From NCBI GenBank assembly GCA_016182965.1, contig JACPFM010000002.1, forward strand, positions 62,001-126,000: 64,000 bases of DNA, given 5' to 3'. Position 1 is the stretch's first letter. Every line of letters starts with the position of its first letter. Below, piece after piece: positions 10,879 through 58,489 of the stretch. The stretch comes from Deltaproteobacteria bacterium (lineage in GTDB: Bacteria > Myxococcota_A > Polyangia > Polyangiales > JADJMO01). The notes beneath the pieces are model-generated. The model ran no database searches and was not told where the DNA came from. It was given only the letters and a program-made list of their open reading frames with translations. Made by a program: the position numbers and the translations under genes.

Positions 10879-11050
10879 CTCCCGGATCGGGAGAACCTGA
10901 AGGCCGGGGCAGGTCACTGCCAGCCGAAGCCCGCCGTATCGGCGGGCTCCTGTTTCGGACGCACGCGCCGTGCGGCGAGGGACGCTTCGCGGAGCCCGCC
11001 GTTGGCGGGCTTCAGCCGAAACGATCCCTGCCCCAGCCTTCAGGCTGGGG
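10879..11050. repeat. Cluster of palindromes (REP-like element)
   Basis: The 368-bp gap after the SET gene holds no ORF I can support, but four palindromes. CTCCCGGATCGGGAG lies at 10879-10893, two AGCCCGCCG...CGGCGGGCT-type hairpins at about 10930-10950 and 10997-11015, and CCCCAGCCTTCAGGCTGGGG at 11031-11050. The outer parts (CCTGAAGGC-x-GGGGCAGG at 10896 and its inverse ending near 11047) pair with each other, so the unit is an inverted repeat of about 150 bp. Confidence 0.7.
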
Positions 11051-11094
11051 ATACAAGCTCTGCACGAACCGGTCGTTGAGCCGTCATCTCTCCC

Positions 11095-11112
11095 CTTCGA
11101 CCTTCGACCTCG
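11095..11112. repeat. CCTTCGACCTTCGACC half-element
   Basis: Single arm of the TCGAAGGT-type inverted repeat seen complete at 17112, 35495 and 39410. It lies 3' of the decayed MYXO-CTERM gene. Confidence 0.5.
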
Positions 11113-13950: not shown

Positions 13951-13985
13951 GGTCGAAGTTCGGTCGAAGGTCCAGCCTTCGACGT
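13951..13985. repeat. GGTCGAAGTTCGGTCGAAGG half-element
   Basis: Degenerate copy of the TCGAAGGT inverted-repeat family 3' of the S1 gene; arms GGTCGAAGGTCCA and CCTTCGAC can pair. Confidence 0.45.
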
Positions 13986-17111: not shown

Positions 17112-17173
17112 CAAACGTCGAAGGTCCAAGGTCCAGCGAGAAGCCTTTCGCTTCGACCTTCGACCTTCGACCA
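17112..17173. repeat. TCGAAGGT-type inverted repeat, compact copy
   Basis: Left arm GTCGAAGGTCCAAGGTCC and right arm TTCGACCTTCGACCTTCGACC flank about 17 bp and can form a long hairpin. It lies 3' of the lipoprotein gene ending at 17199 and may act as its terminator. Same family as 35495 and 39410. Confidence 0.7.
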
Positions 17174-25177: not shown

Positions 25178-26813
25178 CCGCGTCCGCGTTCGCGTCCCCG
25201 TTCGCGTCCGCGTTTGCGTTCGCGTTCGCGTTCGCGTTCGCGTTCGTGTGCGCGTTCGTGTGCGCGAGCGGCAGGTAGACCGAGAACTGCACGCCGTCGT
25301 CGGCGGCGTCGAGTTCGACGCGGCCGCCCATCGACGACAGGCCGTGCTGCACGACGAACAGGCCGAGGCCGGTGCCCTCGGCGCGCGTGGTGAAGAACGG
25401 CTCGAAGATGCGCCGGCCGGTCGCGGCGTCGATCGGATCGCCCTCGTTGTGGACGCGCAGACGGCACTCGCCCGCGGTCGGCGCCGCGTGGATGCGAATG
25501 CGCCCTCCGCGCGCGACGTGGTTCATCGCGTTGTCGACGAGGTTGAGGAGCACGCGACGCAGCGTGTCGCGGTCGGCGGTCACCCAGAGCGCCGGGTCGA
25601 CGACGGCCTCGGGCGCGCGGACCTCCGGGTGGACGCTGGACGCGGCGGCCACGACGTCGTCGACGACCTCGCGCAGCGAGACGGCCGTCGGATTCGTCTC
25701 GGTCGGGCGGGAGAACTGCAGCAGCTCGGCGACGACCCTGCGCAGCCTCGTCGCCTCCTCGCGGCTCGCGGCGAGCGCGGTGCGTCCCGCCTCGCTCAGC
25801 GTGCTCTCGTGCGCGATCGCGGCGAGCGCGACGGTGAGCACCGCCAGCGGGTGTCGGATCTCGTGCGCTACCACCGCGATGGTCTCGCCCATCGCCGCGA
25901 GGCGCTCTCGCCGCAACATCACCGATTGCAGGCGGGCGTTGCGGGCGATCGCGCCGAGCTGCGCCGCCAGGAGCTGGACGGCGACGAAGTCGTGATCGGT
26001 GAGATCGGCGCCCGCGACCGAGAGCACCGCGGCGATCGATCCCTCCGCCCAGATCGGGCACCAGATGCTGCGGCGCACGCGCGCCTCGGCCATGCTCCGG
26101 TCGAGGTCTGCGGCGAACTTCAGCGGCGCGTTCGCCGTCGACGGGAGGTTGTCGAGGAAGACGGCACGGCCGGTCTCGGCGACGTGGGTGGCGATCGGCG
26201 AGCTCTCGCGGTCGAGCCGTCGGCCGATGAGCGTTCGCCCGTACGCGGTGATCGGATCGTCCTCGCGCCCGAGCACGGAGATGGGCACGATCCGGCTCGC
26301 CTCGATCACGCTGTAGGCGACGGTCCAGCCGAGGTCGGCGAACGCTGGCTCGGCGCTCTTCAGGAAGGCGAGCACGTCGGGGCGGGCGCCGAAGGAGAGC
26401 TCCGCGAGCCGCCCGATGAGCGCCTCGGCGCGCGACGTCTCGGTCATGTCGCGCGCGGTGAGGACCAGCAGGTCACCGCTGCGCAAGGAGCGCAGATCGA
26501 CCAGCGCCTCGGCGCCGCTCGGACGCGCCAGGCGCACCCGGAACGTGACGGGGAGCGCCCACCCGGCCTCCTGCTGTCGCTCGATCTCGGTGAGGCGTCC
26601 AAGCTCTCCGGGGGCGAGGATCTCCGAAAGCGCCATCCCGATCAGCCGCTCGGACGGCGCGCCCATGAGCGCCGCGGCGCGCGCGTTCACCGCGGCGATG
26701 ACGCCGGCGCGGATCACGAAGACGGCCTCCGGCAGCTGGTCGACGCCGAGACGCCGCACGTCGCGTCGCAGGGCCCCACCTGCTCTCCGTCGTACTGCCT
26801 TCCGCCGTCTCAT
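25158..26813 (-). CDS. PAS-GAF sensor histidine kinase
   Basis: 551 aa, soluble. PAS at about 25-125 (QLPEAVFVIRAGVIAAVNA), GAF at about 140-290, HisKA with the phosphoacceptor H317 in VVAHEIRHPL, then HATPase with N428 (LVDNAMNH), NEGDP at 456-460 and GTGLGLF at 480-486. The last 35 residues are an Asn-Ala repeat (HTNAHTNANANANA...) encoded by the GCGAAC hexamer array, so the repeat has extended the ORF. No response regulator gene is adjacent; the STAS-like gene is divergent. The ATG at 26813 was chosen because upstream in-frame codons are Arg-rich without domain. Signal unknown. Confidence 0.9.
   Translation of the reverse strand: MRRRKAVRRRAGGALRRDVRRLGVDQLPEAVFVIRAGVIAAVNARAAALMGAPSERLIGMALSEILAPGELGRLTEIERQQEAGWALPVTFRVRLARPSGAEALVDLRSLRSGDLLVLTARDMTETSRAEALIGRLAELSFGARPDVLAFLKSAEPAFADLGWTVAYSVIEASRIVPISVLGREDDPITAYGRTLIGRRLDRESSPIATHVAETGRAVFLDNLPSTANAPLKFAADLDRSMAEARVRRSIWCPIWAEGSIAAVLSVAGADLTDHDFVAVQLLAAQLGAIARNARLQSVMLRRERLAAMGETIAVVAHEIRHPLAVLTVALAAIAHESTLSEAGRTALAASREEATRLRRVVAELLQFSRPTETNPTAVSLREVVDDVVAAASSVHPEVRAPEAVVDPALWVTADRDTLRRVLLNLVDNAMNHVARGGRIRIHAAPTAGECRLRVHNEGDPIDAATGRRIFEPFFTTRAEGTGLGLFVVQHGLSSMGGRVELDAADDGVQFSVYLPLAHTNAHTNANANANANANADANGDANADAVTSAPP
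25179..25264. repeat. GCGAAC-type hexamer array, site 3 (longest)
   Basis: About 14 units of (GCGTTC) with single changes, between the small HTH gene and the kinase core, and read as the C-terminus of the kinase on the minus strand. Confidence 0.85.
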
Positions 26814-33920: not shown

Positions 33921-35174
33921 ATGGCGGAGCAAGTCGGCGCGCGACGCACGATCTGGATCGGCGTCGCGGCGTTGGCGATCGTAGCGCTCGTCCTCCTGCT
34001 CTGGCCCGGTCGCGAGCCCTCGAAGCCGACGAGCCCCGTCGTGGGGAGCGCCTCGACCTCGGGGGCTCCTGCCGTTGCGACGGCGGACAAGGTCGTCGCG
34101 CCGACCCCGTTCACCGCCGCGCCGGATGGCAGCGCCCCCGAGCCGCCGAAGACGATCTGGCAGCTACGGCTGAATCGCGCGCAGCAGACGCTCGACAAGT
34201 ACCTCGAGTCGACGCGCTACCCGCCGCACTCCCGTCCGATCTCCGAGATGCCCGATCTGCAGACCACCGAGCGTCGCGTCGAGAAGCAGCTCGGGTTCCG
34301 CAAGAAGAACGGCACCAAGCGCGGCGATCTGCGCCTGAACCTCACCCAGTCGAGCCAGCGGATCATCGCCGACGAGACGCTCCGCATGACGATCGCGTGC
34401 GTCTCGGGCAAGGGCATCGAGCCGAGCACGGTGCTCTCCGCGCGTTCGGAGGAGCTCCCGTCGCGAGGGCAGACCCAGACGCCGATCGCCTTCGTCGACG
34501 ACGGCTCGCACGGTGACGAGAAGGCCGGCGACCAGGTGTGGACGGCGCTGTTCCAGCCGGCGACCAGCGCGCAGTTCAACGGCTACAACGGCGACGTGCA
34601 GGTGCCGGTCGAGATCCGCTGCAGCGGCGACGAGGCGCTCACCTACTTCAACTTCTTCTACACCGCGAACGTCCCGGCGCGGTTCACCGGCAAGGTCCGC
34701 GAGGCCGTGGAGAAGGGATCGCTCGCGCTCTACCTCGAGCTCGAAGTGAAGAAGGCCGGCTGGTACAAGCTCGATCTGCGCGTCGACGACGCGAACGACA
34801 CGAGGCTCGCGTTCACGAGCTTCGACGCCGAGCTCCCGGTCGGGCTGCACGAGGCGAGGTTCGTGCTGTTCGGAAAGCTGATCGTCGACTACGCGGCGCA
34901 GCCGCCGTTCAAGCTCCGGGATCTCGACGGCTACCGGTTCGTCGCCGACACGAGCCCCGATCGCGAGTACCTGAAGCCGACGGCCGGCCCGATCTACACG
35001 ACGAAGACGTACCCCGCCGGGACCTTCTCCGACGCCGAGTGGACGAGCGAGGAGAAGGACCGGAACGTCGCCGAGTTCACCAAGGACGTGAAGGAGGCGA
35101 AGGAGAAGGTTGCCGACGAGCAGAGCGGCAAGATCCCGAAGGAGTACCCGCCGAGCAGCGCCCCGCCGAAGTGA
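33921..35174 (+). CDS. Choice-of-anchor X domain protein, membrane-anchored
   Basis: 417 aa. One N-terminal helix (IWIGVAALAIVALVLLLW) then a Ser/Thr/Pro linker and a long periplasmic part. Residues of about 145-325 have the pattern of choice-of-anchor X proteins (AFVDDGSHGDEKAGDQVWTALF, then YNGDVQVPVEI, VRVDDAND-like and LPVGLHEARFVLFGKL). The C-terminal tail is Lys/Glu-rich helical. Such proteins are typical of myxobacteria and poorly understood. The gene overlaps the start of the frameshifted methyltransferase (GTGA). Confidence 0.8.
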   Translation: MAEQVGARRTIWIGVAALAIVALVLLLWPGREPSKPTSPVVGSASTSGAPAVATADKVVAPTPFTAAPDGSAPEPPKTIWQLRLNRAQQTLDKYLESTRYPPHSRPISEMPDLQTTERRVEKQLGFRKKNGTKRGDLRLNLTQSSQRIIADETLRMTIACVSGKGIEPSTVLSARSEELPSRGQTQTPIAFVDDGSHGDEKAGDQVWTALFQPATSAQFNGYNGDVQVPVEIRCSGDEALTYFNFFYTANVPARFTGKVREAVEKGSLALYLELEVKKAGWYKLDLRVDDANDTRLAFTSFDAELPVGLHEARFVLFGKLIVDYAAQPPFKLRDLDGYRFVADTSPDREYLKPTAGPIYTTKTYPAGTFSDAEWTSEEKDRNVAEFTKDVKEAKEKVADEQSGKIPKEYPPSSAPPK

Positions 35175-35494
35175 GCGCCGCACGGCAGGTGCGCGTGCTC
35201 GACGTGGGCGCCGGGACGGCAACTGGCTCGAGGCGCACGCGTGCGCGCTCGGCGGGCGCGCGGAGCTGGTGGGCGTCGACCCGTCGGAGGCGATGCTCGC
35301 GCGCGCGCGCGGCAAGCTCACGTGCGTGCCGCTCGTGGTCGCGAGCGCCGAGGCGCTGCCGTTCGCGGACGGCGCCTTCGATTTCGTGGTCTCGCGCTTC
35401 GCGTTCCATCATTTCGGCGACAAGCCACGCGCGCTCGACGAGCTCACCCGGGTCGTCGCGCCCGGCGGCGCGCTCGCGCTCGCGAACTTCGAAC
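35171..35494 (+). pseudogene. Frameshifted, truncated class I methyltransferase
   Basis: GTG at 35171 starts VSAARQVRVLDVGAGT, the AdoMet-binding motif I. One C is missing near 35217; after it a different frame reads NWLEAHACALGGRAELVGVDPSEAML, ASAEALPFADGAFDFVVSRFAFHHF and VVAPGGALALANFER, all Methyltransf_11 motifs. The frame then runs directly into the TCGAAGGT repeat at 35495, so the C-terminal third is lost. The single-base change could be a sequencing error; the truncation by the repeat could not. Confidence 0.7.
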
Positions 35495-35622
35495 GGTCGA
35501 AGGTCGAATCGAGGCCCATTTCCCCGGGGTTCCAGGGGCTTGGCCCCTGGTTCGACCTTCGACTTCTCGACCTTCGACCAGCCTCGACGGAAGATCCGCC
35601 TTCCTGACGACTGACGACTCTA
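35495..35622. repeat. TCGAAGGT inverted repeat with TGACGAC heptads, copy 1
   Basis: Left arm GGTCGAAGGTCGAA, central GGGGTTCCAGGGGC / GCCCCTGG hairpin, right arms TTCGACCTTCGAC and CTCGACCTTCGACC, then two TGACGAC heptads. Truncates the methyltransferase on the left and reaches the stop codon of the FHA gene on the right. Core shared with 39410. Confidence 0.85.
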
Positions 35623-36969
35623 CGACGTCACTTCGACGCGCAGGATCTTCTTGCCGATGAAGATGTAGTCGCCGTGCGAGAGCTCGCGCTCGCCGCGCAG
35701 CCGGATGTACGTGCCGTTGCGCGAGTTGAGGTCGGTGAGCACGAACTTGGTGCCGCTCGGATCCGCGTCGACCTTGCAGTGGGTCGCGCTCATGTACACG
35801 TCGGTCGGGTAGTTCATCTCGCCGCCTTCGCGGCCGATGGTGATGCCCGTCTCGCGCGCGCAGACCACGTTGCCGACCGCGCCGCCCTGGAGGATCTGCA
35901 CCACGCGGAACGGGCTCGGGCGCTTGGGCGACGACCAGAAGTAGGTGCCGTCGGGATCGGGGTGGTCGGTGGCCTTCGGCGTCGCGTCGATGCGGAAGAC
36001 CTCTTCGCCGGCGAGGAACATGTCACCCGCCTGCGCCTCGACCGCGCCGCGGACGCGCACGTACACGCCGTTCAGCGAGCCTTCGTCGCGCACGACGAGC
36101 CGGCCCTCGCGGTAGAAGAGGTTCGCGTGCCGCGGCGACACGAAGCGGTCCTCGGGGAACGTGAGGTGACCCTGACGTCCGACCACGTGCTCCTGCGCGT
36201 TGAGCGCGAAAGACAGGCCCTCCATCGCCGCGTCGCCCTCGGCGCGGATGAGGATCAGCTTGGCGCGGCCGGGCACCTGCAGCGTGCCGTAGTACTCCTC
36301 GCGCAGCGTGAGGATGTCCGGCGGGACGGCGGCGCCGCAGCGGCCACAGAACTTGTGGCCGCTCGGGATCGGCGTTTGGCAGGAACGACAGATATAGTTT
36401 TTCGCTTGCTCCATCAGCTCCTCCTTCGTCCTTCCACGCGCCGCTCCGCCCACTGGCGGGCGAATCGGTATCTTCCCTGAGGTCTCGTGCCCCCATGACT
36501 CCGGGGAGCCGCGCACGACCTCCACCCTCGGTACAATCGATGGGCTCGGGCGCGAAGGCATAACGTCCGGCGCCTGCGGTCTGACGCGGCGCTCGGACAT
36601 CGGCGGCAGCTCCGCGGTGGACGGGCGGCGCACCGGCGGCAGCTCCGGCGGCACCTCCATCACCCGGGCGGCCGGCTTCTGGGTGGGCACCTTCGAGATC
36701 GGCGGCACCGACTCGACCTTCGGCCCGGGCTTGGGCACCTCGGGCCTGGTCGAGGGCGTCGACGCCTGGGCCGGCGGCGTGGCGTGCATCGGCGGCGGCG
36801 CGAGGCTCGCGACCTTCTCGCGGTAGAGCGTCAGATCGTGGCCGCACGTCGAGCAACGCGCGGTGCCCATCGGGCTGTACGCGTCACAACGGCCGCAGAC
36901 GACACCTAGCTCCAGGTTCACGTTCGACCCGAGAATCCGGGCGCGCGAGGCGCCCTCAGGGTGGATCAC
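35620..36969 (-). CDS. Double zinc-ribbon, double FHA-domain protein
   Basis: 449 aa, cytoplasmic. N-terminal C4 ribbon (VCGRCDAYSPMGTARCSTCG, about 24-43), a long Pro/Ser/Val linker, a second ribbon (YICRSCQ...FCGRCG, about 191-212), then FHA domains at about 250-335 (GRQGHLTFPED, SPRHANL, SLNGVYVR) and about 365-448 (IGREGGEMNYPTD, SATHCKV, NSRNGTYIR). FHA domains bind pThr, so this probably reads kinase output. The start is a GTG at 36969; an internal ATG is unlikely. It follows cysS by about 55 bp on the same strand and may share its transcript. Confidence 0.9.
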   Translation of the reverse strand: MIHPEGASRARILGSNVNLELGVVCGRCDAYSPMGTARCSTCGHDLTLYREKVASLAPPPMHATPPAQASTPSTRPEVPKPGPKVESVPPISKVPTQKPAARVMEVPPELPPVRRPSTAELPPMSERRVRPQAPDVMPSRPSPSIVPRVEVVRGSPESWGHETSGKIPIRPPVGGAARGRTKEELMEQAKNYICRSCQTPIPSGHKFCGRCGAAVPPDILTLREEYYGTLQVPGRAKLILIRAEGDAAMEGLSFALNAQEHVVGRQGHLTFPEDRFVSPRHANLFYREGRLVVRDEGSLNGVYVRVRGAVEAQAGDMFLAGEEVFRIDATPKATDHPDPDGTYFWSSPKRPSPFRVVQILQGGAVGNVVCARETGITIGREGGEMNYPTDVYMSATHCKVDADPSGTKFVLTDLNSRNGTYIRLRGERELSHGDYIFIGKKILRVEVTS

Positions 36970-37024
36970 CGTATCGGGACGCGACGAGGAGGGTCAAGGT
37001 CGGGGAGGAGCCGCTCGGGCGCCG

Positions 37025-38572
<1,548 letters not shown>

Positions 38573-38696
38573 GATGAAGACGAGCTCGTTTCGCCCCGCC
38601 GAACGCGGGGCGCAACAGCTCGGATGACGCTCGGCGTCAGCGGATTGTGCGGTCGCCGGCCGTCGGGCGCCAGGGGGCGATCGGGGTTTTCTCCGC

Positions 38697-38702
38697 TACG
38701 CT
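38697..38702 (+). promoter_or_regulatory. -10-like hexamer TACGCT
   Basis: 8 nt before the ATG at 38711; identical hexamer and near-identical spacing at 46895 and 51540. Confidence 0.6.
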
Positions 38703-38710
38703 TGGCCCCG

Positions 38711-39403
38711 ATGGCGAATTCGACGGTGCGCAGCGACGGCGCGAAGACCCCCGACACCACCGCCCTCGCTCGACCCGACTCGCGCGCGCTCGCGATGGAG
38801 GTGCTGCGGGCGAGCGGCATCGGCCTGCTCGCCGGTCGCGTGCTCATCCCGACCCCGCGTCTGGTCGCGATCGCGCGCGACGCGCTCGCCAAGGTCAAGG
38901 CGGTCGAGTCGATCGATCTCGTCCCCGGCGAGGGTGAGGTCCGCATCCACCTCGTGCTACAGATGGCCGGCAGCGCCACGCGCGTCGTGGTGCGCGTCGC
39001 GGTCGCTGCGTTCCACGTCAACGACAAGGGCGGCGCGTTGCTCCTGCGGCTCCTCGAGCCGCCGACCTTCTCGGGCAAGAACGGCGGCCGGAGCTCCGGC
39101 CTCCTCGGGATGATCGGCACCTTCGGCGAGGCGGCCCTGAGCTCGATGGGGCCCGAGCGCATCCTGCAGACGGTCGCCGAGTTCATCGGGCCGCCGGTGA
39201 AGGCGCGCCGCGATCTGCTGATCCTCGACCTCGGCTCGATCCCCCGGCTCAAGAAGGCGCTCGCGCGCGAGACGGTCGTCGGGCGCGTGGGGGAGATCGT
39301 CCACGTGAGCGGCGCGCGGTTCCGCCCCGGCGGGCTGGAGATCACGCTGCAGATCCAGCGCGCGCCGATCCTCGCGTCGCTGCGCCAGCGGCTGTTCGGC
39401 TGA
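38711..39403 (+). CDS. Hypothetical cytoplasmic protein
   Basis: 230 aa without signal or membrane segment. A helical N-terminal part with RPDSRALAMEVLRASGIGLLAGR is followed by two strand-rich parts: VESIDLVPGEGEVRIHLVLQM and VGEIVHVSGARFRPGGLEITLQI. It is not recognised. The frame upstream is open but unrelated, antisense to cysS. Leaderless start likely. Ends at the left edge of the repeat at 39410. Confidence 0.65.
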   Translation: MANSTVRSDGAKTPDTTALARPDSRALAMEVLRASGIGLLAGRVLIPTPRLVAIARDALAKVKAVESIDLVPGEGEVRIHLVLQMAGSATRVVVRVAVAAFHVNDKGGALLLRLLEPPTFSGKNGGRSSGLLGMIGTFGEAALSSMGPERILQTVAEFIGPPVKARRDLLILDLGSIPRLKKALARETVVGRVGEIVHVSGARFRPGGLEITLQIQRAPILASLRQRLFG

Positions 39404-39409
39404 TGGGGA

Positions 39410-39629
39410 GTCGTCAGTCGTCAGTCGTCAGTCGAGAATCGCCGCGGTATAGGCATCGCCGCCGCGTCCGCTGCGTCGACAAGGTCGAAGGTCGAAGGGA
39501 GAGGCCGCGCCTCCGGGGTTCCAGGGGGCCCGCCCCTGGTTCGACCTTCGACCCTTTCGACCTTCGACCCGGTCTCGACGAAAGCTCCCGACTGACGACT
39601 GACGACTGACGACTGACGACTGACGACTA
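39410..39629. repeat. TCGAAGGT inverted repeat with TGACGAC heptads, copy 2 (complete)
   Basis: Left: three TCGTCAG heptads (39410-39434). Core: AAGGTCGAAGGTCGAAGGG, GGGGTTCCAGGGGGC / GCCCCTGG, then TTCGACCTTCGACC twice (39482-39570). Right: five to six TGACGAC heptads (39589-39628). The whole unit is an inverted repeat of about 220 bp between convergent genes, touching both stop codons. Confidence 0.88.
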
Positions 39630-40310
39630 CAGATTGACCCACACTACGAGCAGCGCGGTGTGCATCAGGCGGCCGTCGCGGTTCGGGCGGTAGAACGCGT
39701 TGGCCACGTAGGTCGGCTCGAAGATCAGCTTCTTCGAGACCGCGTACTGGAAGCCGACGGCGAACCGGTTCTGATCGAGGCCCGGCTTGGGCCCGCGATC
39801 GGGCGACGCGAGGTGGAACATGATCTCGTCCCACACGACCACGCCGAACCCGTGCCACGCCTTCGGGCGATAGACGAAGCGCGGCATGAAGCGCACGCGC
39901 CAGGAGGGACCGTCGAGGGTCTCGATGAACCGCTGCTCCAGGCGCAGGCGATGGACGAGCGTCACCTCGCGCACGTCGGCCTGGTGCGTGAGCTGCTGCC
40001 ACGCCCGGTGCTCGTCCTTGAAGACCGGCGTCAGCTGCGGCGTCCAGGCGTAGCCGGCCCACGCGGTGAAGCCGCTCCCGAGGCCGTAGTTGAGCGCGGG
40101 GCGCAGCATCATGCGCGTGTCGTCGTGCGGGAGCCTTCGCCCCTGCGCCTCGGCGTAGAGGCGCAGCTTCCCGGCGACCGGGGCCTGGAGGACCACCGCG
40201 CCCCACAGCTGCTCGTCGACCTCGAACGCATGGGCGGCTCGGGGAGCGCTCAGCGACACGGCGGCAACGGCGGCAATGGCTGCGGCCCAGCAGGCGACCT
40301 TCGTCTTCAT
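39627..40310 (-). CDS. DUF2490 outer-membrane protein
   Basis: 227 aa. Signal peptide (MKTKVACWAAAIAAVAAVSLSA, cleaved near AHA), then DEQLWGAVVLQAPVAGKLRLYAEAQGR, the DUF2490 opening. Alternating strands continue (RLRLEQRFIE, VRFMPRFVYRP, NRFAVGFQYAVS) to a hydrophobic-aromatic C-terminus, so it is a small outer-membrane beta barrel of unknown function. The ATG at 40310 is preferred over the open upstream frame because of the signal peptide. TATACG sits 7 nt upstream. Its stop lies on the edge of the repeat at 39410. Confidence 0.85.
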   Translation of the reverse strand: MKTKVACWAAAIAAVAAVSLSAPRAAHAFEVDEQLWGAVVLQAPVAGKLRLYAEAQGRRLPHDDTRMMLRPALNYGLGSGFTAWAGYAWTPQLTPVFKDEHRAWQQLTHQADVREVTLVHRLRLEQRFIETLDGPSWRVRFMPRFVYRPKAWHGFGVVVWDEIMFHLASPDRGPKPGLDQNRFAVGFQYAVSKKLIFEPTYVANAFYRPNRDGRLMHTALLVVWVNL

Positions 40311-43061: not shown

Positions 43062-43293
43062 CCCCCGGACTGAAGTCCGGGGCACCGACAGCCGGGCCAA
43101 GCCCTCCGGGCTGCGAGCCGCTCGTTCTCGAGGAAGTGCAGCGGTCGACCGGCCAGTGAAGTCGCCGGCACCCTGTTCTCATCCTGTTCGCCGCTGGATG
43201 TTCTTGCAGCGACAGCTCCGAGCCAGTCCGGCGAGTCGGTGAAGTCCGAAGGACTTGAGCTGCCGTCGGTGCCCCGGACTTCAGTCCGGGGGG
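43062..43293. repeat. MITE-like element with palindromic ends, copy 1
   Basis: About 232 bp, no ORF. Left end CCCCGGACTGAAGTCCGGGG, then GCACCGAC; right end GTCGGTGC then CCCCGGACTTCAGTCCGGGG. Internal GTGAAGTCCGAAGGACTTGA is a further inverted repeat. Inverted copy at 58263. Confidence 0.85.
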
Positions 43294-45119: not shown

Positions 45120-45241
45120 CACAATTTCAGCGGTGACCGTTACAGTGACGTGTGTGTCTGTCCGGACGGTCGGCGACCGGGCGCGCGGGCTCGTCCTGCA
45201 TCGCCCTGGCTTCGCGACTTCGACGGCTTCTTCGCCGAGCG

Positions 45242-45601
45242 CTACGTCCCACGCTTCGCGGTCTTCCTCGCGGTCTTCTTCGAAGTCTTCTTCGACCTCT
45301 TCTTCGCGGGCCTCTTCGCCGTCTTCTTCGCGCCCTTCTTCGCGGCCTTCTTGGCGCCGGCCTTCGCGGCCTTCTTGCCGCCCTTCTTGCCGCCCTTCTT
45401 CGCGGGCTCCGTGTTCGTCGCCTTCCCGCGCCCCGAGCCGCTCTCCTTCCCGCCGCCGGTCATCGCGTTGACCGTGGCCCACGCGCGGCGCTTCGACTCC
45501 TTCTTGCTCTTCCCGCGCTCCGCGTAGCCCTCGGCGATGTGCTCCGCCTGTCGCTTCTGCTTCGGGGTGTACGCCTTCTTCGAACCGCGCCTGCTGGCCA
45601 T
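45242..45601 (-). CDS. Basic protein: conserved small domain plus H1-like tail
   Basis: 119 aa. The first 60 residues (YTPKQKRQAEHIAEGYAERG, then RRAWATVNAMTGGGKESGSGRG) match a short family often labelled plasmid-stabilisation protein, though its role is not shown. The last 50 residues are a Lys/Ala/Thr tail (KKAAKAGAKKAAKKG...) like histone H1 or AlgP/Hc1. It probably binds DNA; chromatin role inferred only. The ATG at 45601 excludes an antisense-like upstream extension. Confidence 0.8.
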   Translation of the reverse strand: MASRRGSKKAYTPKQKRQAEHIAEGYAERGKSKKESKRRAWATVNAMTGGGKESGSGRGKATNTEPAKKGGKKGGKKAAKAGAKKAAKKGAKKTAKRPAKKRSKKTSKKTARKTAKRGT

Positions 45602-58262: not shown

Positions 58263-58489
58263 CCCCCGGACTGAAGTCCGGGGCACCGACTGCACCTCAA
58301 GTCCTACGGACTTCACCGAATCGCCAGTCTGGCTTGGAGATGTCGCTGCAGAGTCGGCCAGTCACCGGCGAGTCTGAGCCCCGCGGCCGCTCTCGAGGCA
58401 GGTCGACCGAACGCACTTCCTCGGCACAAACACTCGCCAGCCCGGAGGGCTTCGCTCTGCTGTCGGTGCCCCGGGTTTCAACCCGGGGG
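58263..58489. repeat. MITE-like element with palindromic ends, copy 2 (inverted)
   Basis: About 227 bp, no ORF. Left end CCCCGGACTGAAGTCCGGGG; right end CCCCGGGTTTCAACCCGGGG. The reverse complement matches copy 1 across most of its length (about 70-80% by eye), including GGGGCACCGACAGC, AAGCCCTCCGGGCT, GAGGAAGTGC and GGTCGACC. Confidence 0.85.

What the first reader, a model, noticed from the sequence alone, without database searches (positions are those of the whole stretch)
35495..39629. Composite inverted repeat: TCGAAGGT arms, GGGGTTCCAGGGG core, TGACGAC heptads
Copies at 35495-35622 and 39410-39629 share the same nested design, with shorter relatives at 11095, 13951 and 17112. All are intergenic, at gene ends. 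In the best copy the heptad runs on the two sides are inverted to each other. I know no family with this layout. It may be a mobile REP-like unit or a double terminator.
Basis: seen in the sequence. Interest (0 to 1): 0.68.

Follow-up and report, generated by a model that had tools for sequence, protein, structure and literature searches.

The report
Nested heptad repeats behind stop codons
Hundreds of DNA elements built from two tandem 7-letter words, arranged as nested mirror images, sit directly behind stop codons in this bacterium but are missing from its sampled relatives, so they look like a recently spread REP-like repeat of a new design whose job at gene ends is unknown.

Summary
In the 9.59-Mb draft genome, (TGACGAC)2 occurs 1403 times, (TCGAAGG)2 328 times and GGGGTTCCAGGGG 48 times; the same patterns read backwards occur 0 times. 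The elements follow a strict order: stop codon, (AGTCGTC)n, (GGTCGAA)n, GC hairpin, (TTCGACC)n, (GACGACT)n. Outermost arms are 39:0 and 34:0 in one polarity. They occupy 28% of convergent, 6% of tandem and 0.6% of divergent gaps. A 164-bp unit with imperfect terminal inverted repeats sits in fixed phase inside the AGTCGTC arrays (at least 40 copies, up to 96% to consensus). The same-genus genome lacks them; at one orthologous gap a 334-bp element stands against 6 bp, protein ends conserved. I read them as nested, non-autonomous, REP/MITE-like repeats with heptad microsatellite arms, accumulated directly behind stop codons. They are not REPs: no short palindromic unit, no link to Y1 (RAYT-type) transposases. 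A terminator role is unproven: no T-run, no covariation. The closest described kind is intergenic heptamer repeats (Xanthomonas/Nostoc GGGAATC; Beggiatoaceae TAACTGA). Related CAGTNNN heptad arrays in other phyla show the same stop-codon polarity (22:6, p=0.004).

The parts
39401..39403 (+). TGA stop of the + gene 38711-39403; the left heptad arm starts 5 nt behind it
39409..39434 (+). outer left arm (AGTCGTC) x3.7, element 2
39481..39498 (+). inner left arm (GGTCGAA) x2.6, element 2
39515..39527 (+). core GGGGTTCCAGGGG; with the following CCCCTGG it forms the GC hairpin
39540..39569 (-). inner right arm (TTCGACC), two runs, element 2
39458..39592 (-). copy of the dispersed 164-bp unit (model positions 6-143)
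   Evidence: E 6.8e-27
39589..39628 (-). outer right arm (GACGACT) x5.7, element 2
39627..39629 (-). TAG stop of the - gene 39627-40310 (DUF2490); it overlaps the array (TAGTCGTC)
35467..35600 (-). copy of the dispersed 164-bp unit (model positions 7-140), element 1; its far end is missing
   Evidence: E 1.4e-34
35495..35508 (+). inner left arm (GGTCGAA) x2, element 1
35526..35538 (+). core GGGGTTCCAGGGG, element 1
35551..35579 (-). inner right arm (TTCGACC), two runs, element 1
35604..35619 (-). outer right arm (GACGACT) x2.3, element 1; no left partner
35620..35622 (-). TAG stop of the - gene 35620-36969 (FHA and zinc-ribbon domains), directly behind the array
11094..11110 (-). GGTCGAA-family arm alone (x2.4)
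13951..13985 (+). degenerate GGTCGAA-family inverted pair
   Evidence: seen in the sequence
17112..17172 (+). GGTCGAA-family inverted pair: degenerate left arm, TTCGACC x3.1 right arm

Best explanation
These are nested, non-autonomous dispersed elements of MITE/REP type whose arms are heptad microsatellites. Layer 1 (T elements): (AGTCGTC)n - loop - (GACGACT)n, sometimes with a further ~55-bp conserved flank, lodged directly behind stop codons, mostly between convergent genes. Layer 2: a 164-bp imperfect palindrome (terminal inverted repeats about GAGAG-TGTGAA-TC) that contains (GGTCGAA)n / (TTCGACC)n arms and a GC hairpin, inserted in fixed phase within the AGTCGTC arrays. A GGTCGAA family with the same arm-loop-arm plan also exists alone. 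Shown: dispersal, order, polarity, nesting, stop-codon adjacency, absence from the same-genus genome and nearly empty orthologous gaps. Inferred: that copies moved in trans by an unidentified enzyme; that the copy-number differences of the arms come from slippage; and that in mRNA each element folds into one long hairpin next to the stop codon of both neighbouring genes, acting (if it acts) on ribosome release, mRNA 3' ends or converging transcription, as E. coli REPs close to stop codons do.
For: Copy number with clean controls. Polarity 39:0 and 34:0, although either order would fold. 28% / 6% / 0.6% of convergent / tandem / divergent gaps occupied. 59 of 98 T arms start within 8 nt of a stop codon and 31 more at 46-76 nt, mostly across the conserved flank; 8% expected within 8 nt for insertion uniform per base. 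The 164-bp unit has fixed ends and is flanked by direct AGTCGTC heptads; at least 40 copies, up to 96% to consensus. Gap of 334 bp here against 6 bp in the same genus with protein ends conserved, and four more longer-versus-shorter pairs. Single-hairpin fold, z = -9.2.
Against: No transposase could be linked: the Y1_Tnp genes have no element beside them. No clean target-site duplication could be read. Most pairwise identities between unit copies are moderate (median 60%), so movement is mostly old or the units evolve fast. Arm copy numbers are uncorrelated (rho about 0) and the covariation term gives no support, so selection for base pairing is not shown. No expression data.
Confidence: 0.6

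Rival explanations
1. Selected bidirectional 3'-end devices: the hairpin ends or protects the mRNAs of both convergent genes, and the heptads evolved in place for that role.
For: Placement between convergent genes, one long hairpin from either side, near-absence from divergent gaps. In the orthologous L031/L236 gap the related genome carries an ordinary short hairpin instead (seen in the sequence).
Against: No T-run, no covariation, only a weak general hairpin signal behind stop codons, most genes lack the element, and the same-genus genome does without it.
Confidence: 0.2
2. Pure microsatellite behaviour: heptads arose repeatedly by slippage and local inversion or gene conversion in tolerant gene-end spacers, without transposition.
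For: Variable copy number and uncorrelated arms; CAGTNNN-type heptads in many unrelated phyla with different loops.
Against: The 164-bp unit with fixed ends and up to 96% similarity to consensus cannot arise by slippage. Two non-repetitive conserved modules are shared across loci. The polarity is absolute in this genome.
Confidence: 0.12
3. A dedicated targeted mechanism writes heptads directly behind stop codons (enzyme- or RNA-guided), independent of classical transposition.
For: Flush placement far above expectation; the same polarity in other phyla, 22 sense to 6 antisense, 6/6 arm order; both words also stand behind stop codons in two genomes of another family.
Against: No enzyme candidate. 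Purging of copies that hit genes or promoters explains much of the placement. The cross-phylum set rests on simple ORF calls.
Confidence: 0.08

Closest known systems
GGGAATC / GGGGA(C/T)T heptamer repeats of Xanthomonas and Nostoc (PMC4692102)
   [quoted passage not shown] some inverted pairs
   Different: One G-rich word proposed to form quadruplexes; here two non-G4 words, nested, as ordered inverted arms, with a conserved 164-bp unit in between
TAACTGA direct repeats of Beggiatoaceae, Cyanobacteria and Bacteroidetes (PMC4679880)
   Same: Tandem 7-mers; the word is ACTGATA by rotation, the same ACTGNNN class as ACTGACG here; patchy spread over phyla
   Different: Mostly within a few nucleotides upstream of start codons in the type genome, and nearly all direct (169 direct sets, one indirect); here behind stop codons and mostly as ordered inverted arms
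REP / BIME / REPIN elements with RAYT transposases (PMC2817692, PMC3733652, PMC12306157)
   Same: Intergenic, mosaic, inverted, hundreds of copies, often close behind stop codons
   Different: REPs are 20-40 bp single palindromes, most with GTAG or CGTC tags; no such unit and no RAYT linkage here
MITEs
   Same: Short non-coding units with imperfect terminal inverted repeats, dispersed, recent copies
   Different: No parent transposon and no clear target duplication found
Cyanobacterial STRR heptamers (own knowledge; the Calothrix heptanucleotides are cited in PMC4692102)
   Same: Short tandem heptamers between genes
   Different: Not known to me as nested inverted composites fixed to stop codons

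Membership tests
REP/BIME | 20-40 bp palindromic unit, most tagged GTAG or CGTC | tested here: not met
   The arms are tandem heptads and the whole inverted structure is about 80-500 bp long; no tagged short palindrome is the repeating unit. CGTC occurs inside AGTCGTC only as part of the heptad.
REP/BIME | RAYT gene flanked by the repeats | tested here: not met
   Six Y1_Tnp matches in the genome; in the 6-13 kb stretches taken around them the only element is one array about 5 kb from one gene; some stretches were cut by contig ends
REP/BIME | extragenic, high copy, close behind stop codons | tested here: met
Intergenic heptamer repeats | tandem 7-bp units, intergenic, many loci | tested here: met
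Intergenic heptamer repeats | strand bias relative to the neighbouring stop codon | tested here: met
   97 of 102 outermost T-family arms read AGTCGTC in the sense of the gene; partly implied by the fixed arm order
MITE | terminal inverted repeats on a short non-coding unit | tested here: met
   164-bp unit with imperfect GAGAG-TGTGAA-TC ends
MITE | target-site duplication and a related autonomous transposon | tested here: inconclusive
   Flanks are heptad arrays, so a duplication cannot be read; no parent transposon was identified, and only Y1-type transposases were searched
Intrinsic terminator | GC hairpin followed by a T-run | tested here: not met
   The scan finds no terminator-like site in either element
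Known structured RNA (Rfam 15) | match at or above the gathering score | tested here: not met

The most novel reading that the evidence does not exclude
CAGTNNN-type heptad arrays are deposited, or selectively kept, directly behind stop codons in one fixed polarity across several bacterial phyla, by a dedicated and still unknown process; this genome shows it in hypertrophied, nested form.
Probability: 0.12. Interest if true: 0.88.

Novelty: new variant of a known kind. Interest (0 to 1): 0.6.

Why it matters
Intergenic heptamer repeats have been noted in scattered bacteria without an agreed origin or role. This genome has hundreds, in a rigid nested order tied to stop codons, while the sampled same-genus genome has none. 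That makes two questions testable: how such repeats spread, and whether a long hairpin at the stop codon of two convergent genes affects translation termination, mRNA ends or converging polymerases.

Tried and rejected
RAYT mobilisation: no linkage. Intrinsic terminator: no T-run. Selected RNA helix: covariation term +0.84, i.e. no support. Concerted copy number of arms: rho about 0. General hairpins behind all stop codons: weak only (mean z -0.27 against 0.00 in coding controls). Phage or plasmid origin: unit absent from IMG/VR, complete element without a match among plasmids; the T heptad is no commoner in viral contigs (5) than a permuted word (8). A stop-abutting flank module without heptads: never seen. 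Earlier description of these strings: none in the paper library. Homology of the cross-phylum arrays by loop sequence: 27% of arrays in this genome continue with CGAGA[CG] against 1.8% background, but 0 of 89 in other phyla, so those arrays are probably of independent origin. An in-frame shadow ORF (36863-39403 +) misled an early gene assignment; the codon model gives 38711-39403 + and 37025-38572 - (tRNA synthetase domains) instead.

Full report
Setting. The window is G000:C131:62001-126000 of a draft genome (9.59 Mb, 226 contigs, 91% complete), 71% GC. The order-wide searches covered 184 genomes, with one other in the same genus, G051.

The observation. Copy 2 is complete; copy 1 lacks the left outer arm; the three 'relatives' carry only the inner word. 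Genome-wide exact counts are (TCGAAGG)2 328, (TGACGAC)2 1403 and GGGGTTCCAGGGG 48, with 0 for each reversed control. From 134 arrays behind 387 of the 14-mer hits in the sample I estimate roughly 490 T arrays in the genome (extrapolation). Among non-coding tandem repeats of period 4-30 in 464 kb, period 7 stands out (59 arrays), and 40 of those are these two words.

Sample. I read 1.19 Mb: about 0.36 Mb chosen by contig only, most of the rest around core copies, plus the window. Genes were called with a simple codon-model caller of my own, not a curated annotation.

Anatomy. In 105 clusters the order is t - G - core - g - T, where t = (AGTCGTC)n, G = (GGTCGAA)n, g and T their reverse complements; layers may be missing. 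Outermost arms are t..T 39 and T..t 0, G..g 34 and g..G 0. Both orders would fold equally well, so the polarity is a family trait, not a by-product of pairing. Aligning the core copies gives a 164-bp unit with imperfect terminal inverted repeats (AGAGAGTGTGAATC ... GATTGCTTCACATGCTCTC) that sits between direct AGTCGTC heptads in constant phase. One copy (L065) has its inner part flipped relative to the ends, as expected from recombination between the inverted arms (seen in the alignment). Whole-genome search found at least 40 copies, the best 96% to consensus; in G051 there are only two short heptad matches and in three further family genomes nothing. Pairwise identities between copies run from a 5th percentile of 41% to a maximum of 94%, median 60%.

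Position. Elements occupy 48 of 174 convergent gaps, 36 of 581 tandem gaps and 1 of 156 divergent gaps. Of 98 T arms facing a stop codon within 110 nt, 59 begin within 8 nt, often overlapping it (TAGTCGTC, TGAGTCGTC), 31 lie 46-76 nt away, and 8 elsewhere. A conserved ~55-bp flank fills the longer distance and itself starts close to the stop; it was never found without heptads. Insertion uniform per base over present-day empty gaps would put 8% within 8 nt; a gap-wise model puts 28-38%. Part of this can be selection against hits in genes and promoters.

Empty sites. Orthologues of element-bearing genes in G051 end at the same residue, give or take a few, and their gaps are mostly short. The cleanest case: L100 15091-15424, 334 bp between stop codons here, against 6 bp in G051 (L243). 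Others: 268 against about 36, 212 against 42, 161 against 98, 564 against 172. So the elements are additions behind otherwise conserved gene ends, inferred to be insertions in this lineage.

Mobility. Fixed ends, nesting and near-consensus copies argue for movement. The enzyme is unknown. Y1_Tnp (RAYT-type) genes exist in this genome and in G051 but have no elements beside them here.

Function. Copy 2 folds as one hairpin of -138.5 kcal/mol, z = -9.2. There is no T-run, no covariation support, and arm lengths vary independently. By analogy with E. coli, where REPs closer than 16 nt to a stop codon reduce translation (reported in PMC12306157), an effect on ribosomes at the stop codon is plausible. 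This is inference.

Distribution. A 22-mer of the unit is absent from the rest of GTDB r220 and from IMG/VR. In the order, (TGACGAC)3 occurs in 4 of 184 genomes: this one (862 matches), G082 (8), G083 (9) and G176 (2). In G082 and G083, members of another family, several arrays of both words stand directly behind stop codons. Across GTDB the T3 string occurs in many phyla (83 stretches when the scan stopped). There the arrays mix with CAGTNNN variants and show a stop-codon polarity of 22 sense to 6 antisense (p = 0.004), and all six inverted pairs have the order t..T. Their loops are unrelated to those here, so convergence is as likely as descent. The known TAACTGA repeats (PMC4679880) are ACTGATA by rotation and so belong to the same word class; that is my own comparison.

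Verdict. A new variant of a known kind: intergenic heptamer repeats assembled into nested REP/MITE-like composites directly behind stop codons. The anatomy and distribution are solid; mobility is likely; function is open.

Noticed in passing
window 35110-35607 (+): Methyltransferase-like ORF (Methyltransf_11, profile positions 16-94 of 95) that lacks the start of the domain, runs into element 1 and stops at its first TGACGAC heptad; probably a gene remnant whose present 3' end is supplied by the element.
   Followed up: partly
window 43062-43292 and 58263-58489: Two inverted copies of another intergenic repeat (88 nt at 91% and 52 nt at 87%), with CCCCCGGACTGAAGTCCGGGG-type palindromes; a similar CCCCAGCCTTCAGGCTGGGG lies near 11035.
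   Followed up: no
L081 4095-4130 and L091 19487 onward: A third tandem heptad, (CTAGAGT)n, next to AGTCGTC arrays.
   Followed up: no
window 45218-45433 and 25190-25275: 12-bp periodic coding-type repeats (CTTCGCGGC.. and CGTTCG..), apparently within genes.
   Followed up: no
L104 5896-5930 and L112 9621-9656: In two species of another genus (G082, G083) the same gene end carries (GGTCGAA)x5 directly behind its stop codon and 1 nt before the next start: a position conserved between species.
   Followed up: partly
L162, L147, L167, L126, L152, L196: Inverted AGTCNTC pairs of the same arm order in Acidobacteria, Thermomicrobiales, Acidimicrobiia and Planctomycetota.
   Followed up: partly
window 39627-40310 (-): DUF2490 gene (E 4.9e-37) whose TAG stop overlaps the heptad array.
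   Followed up: no
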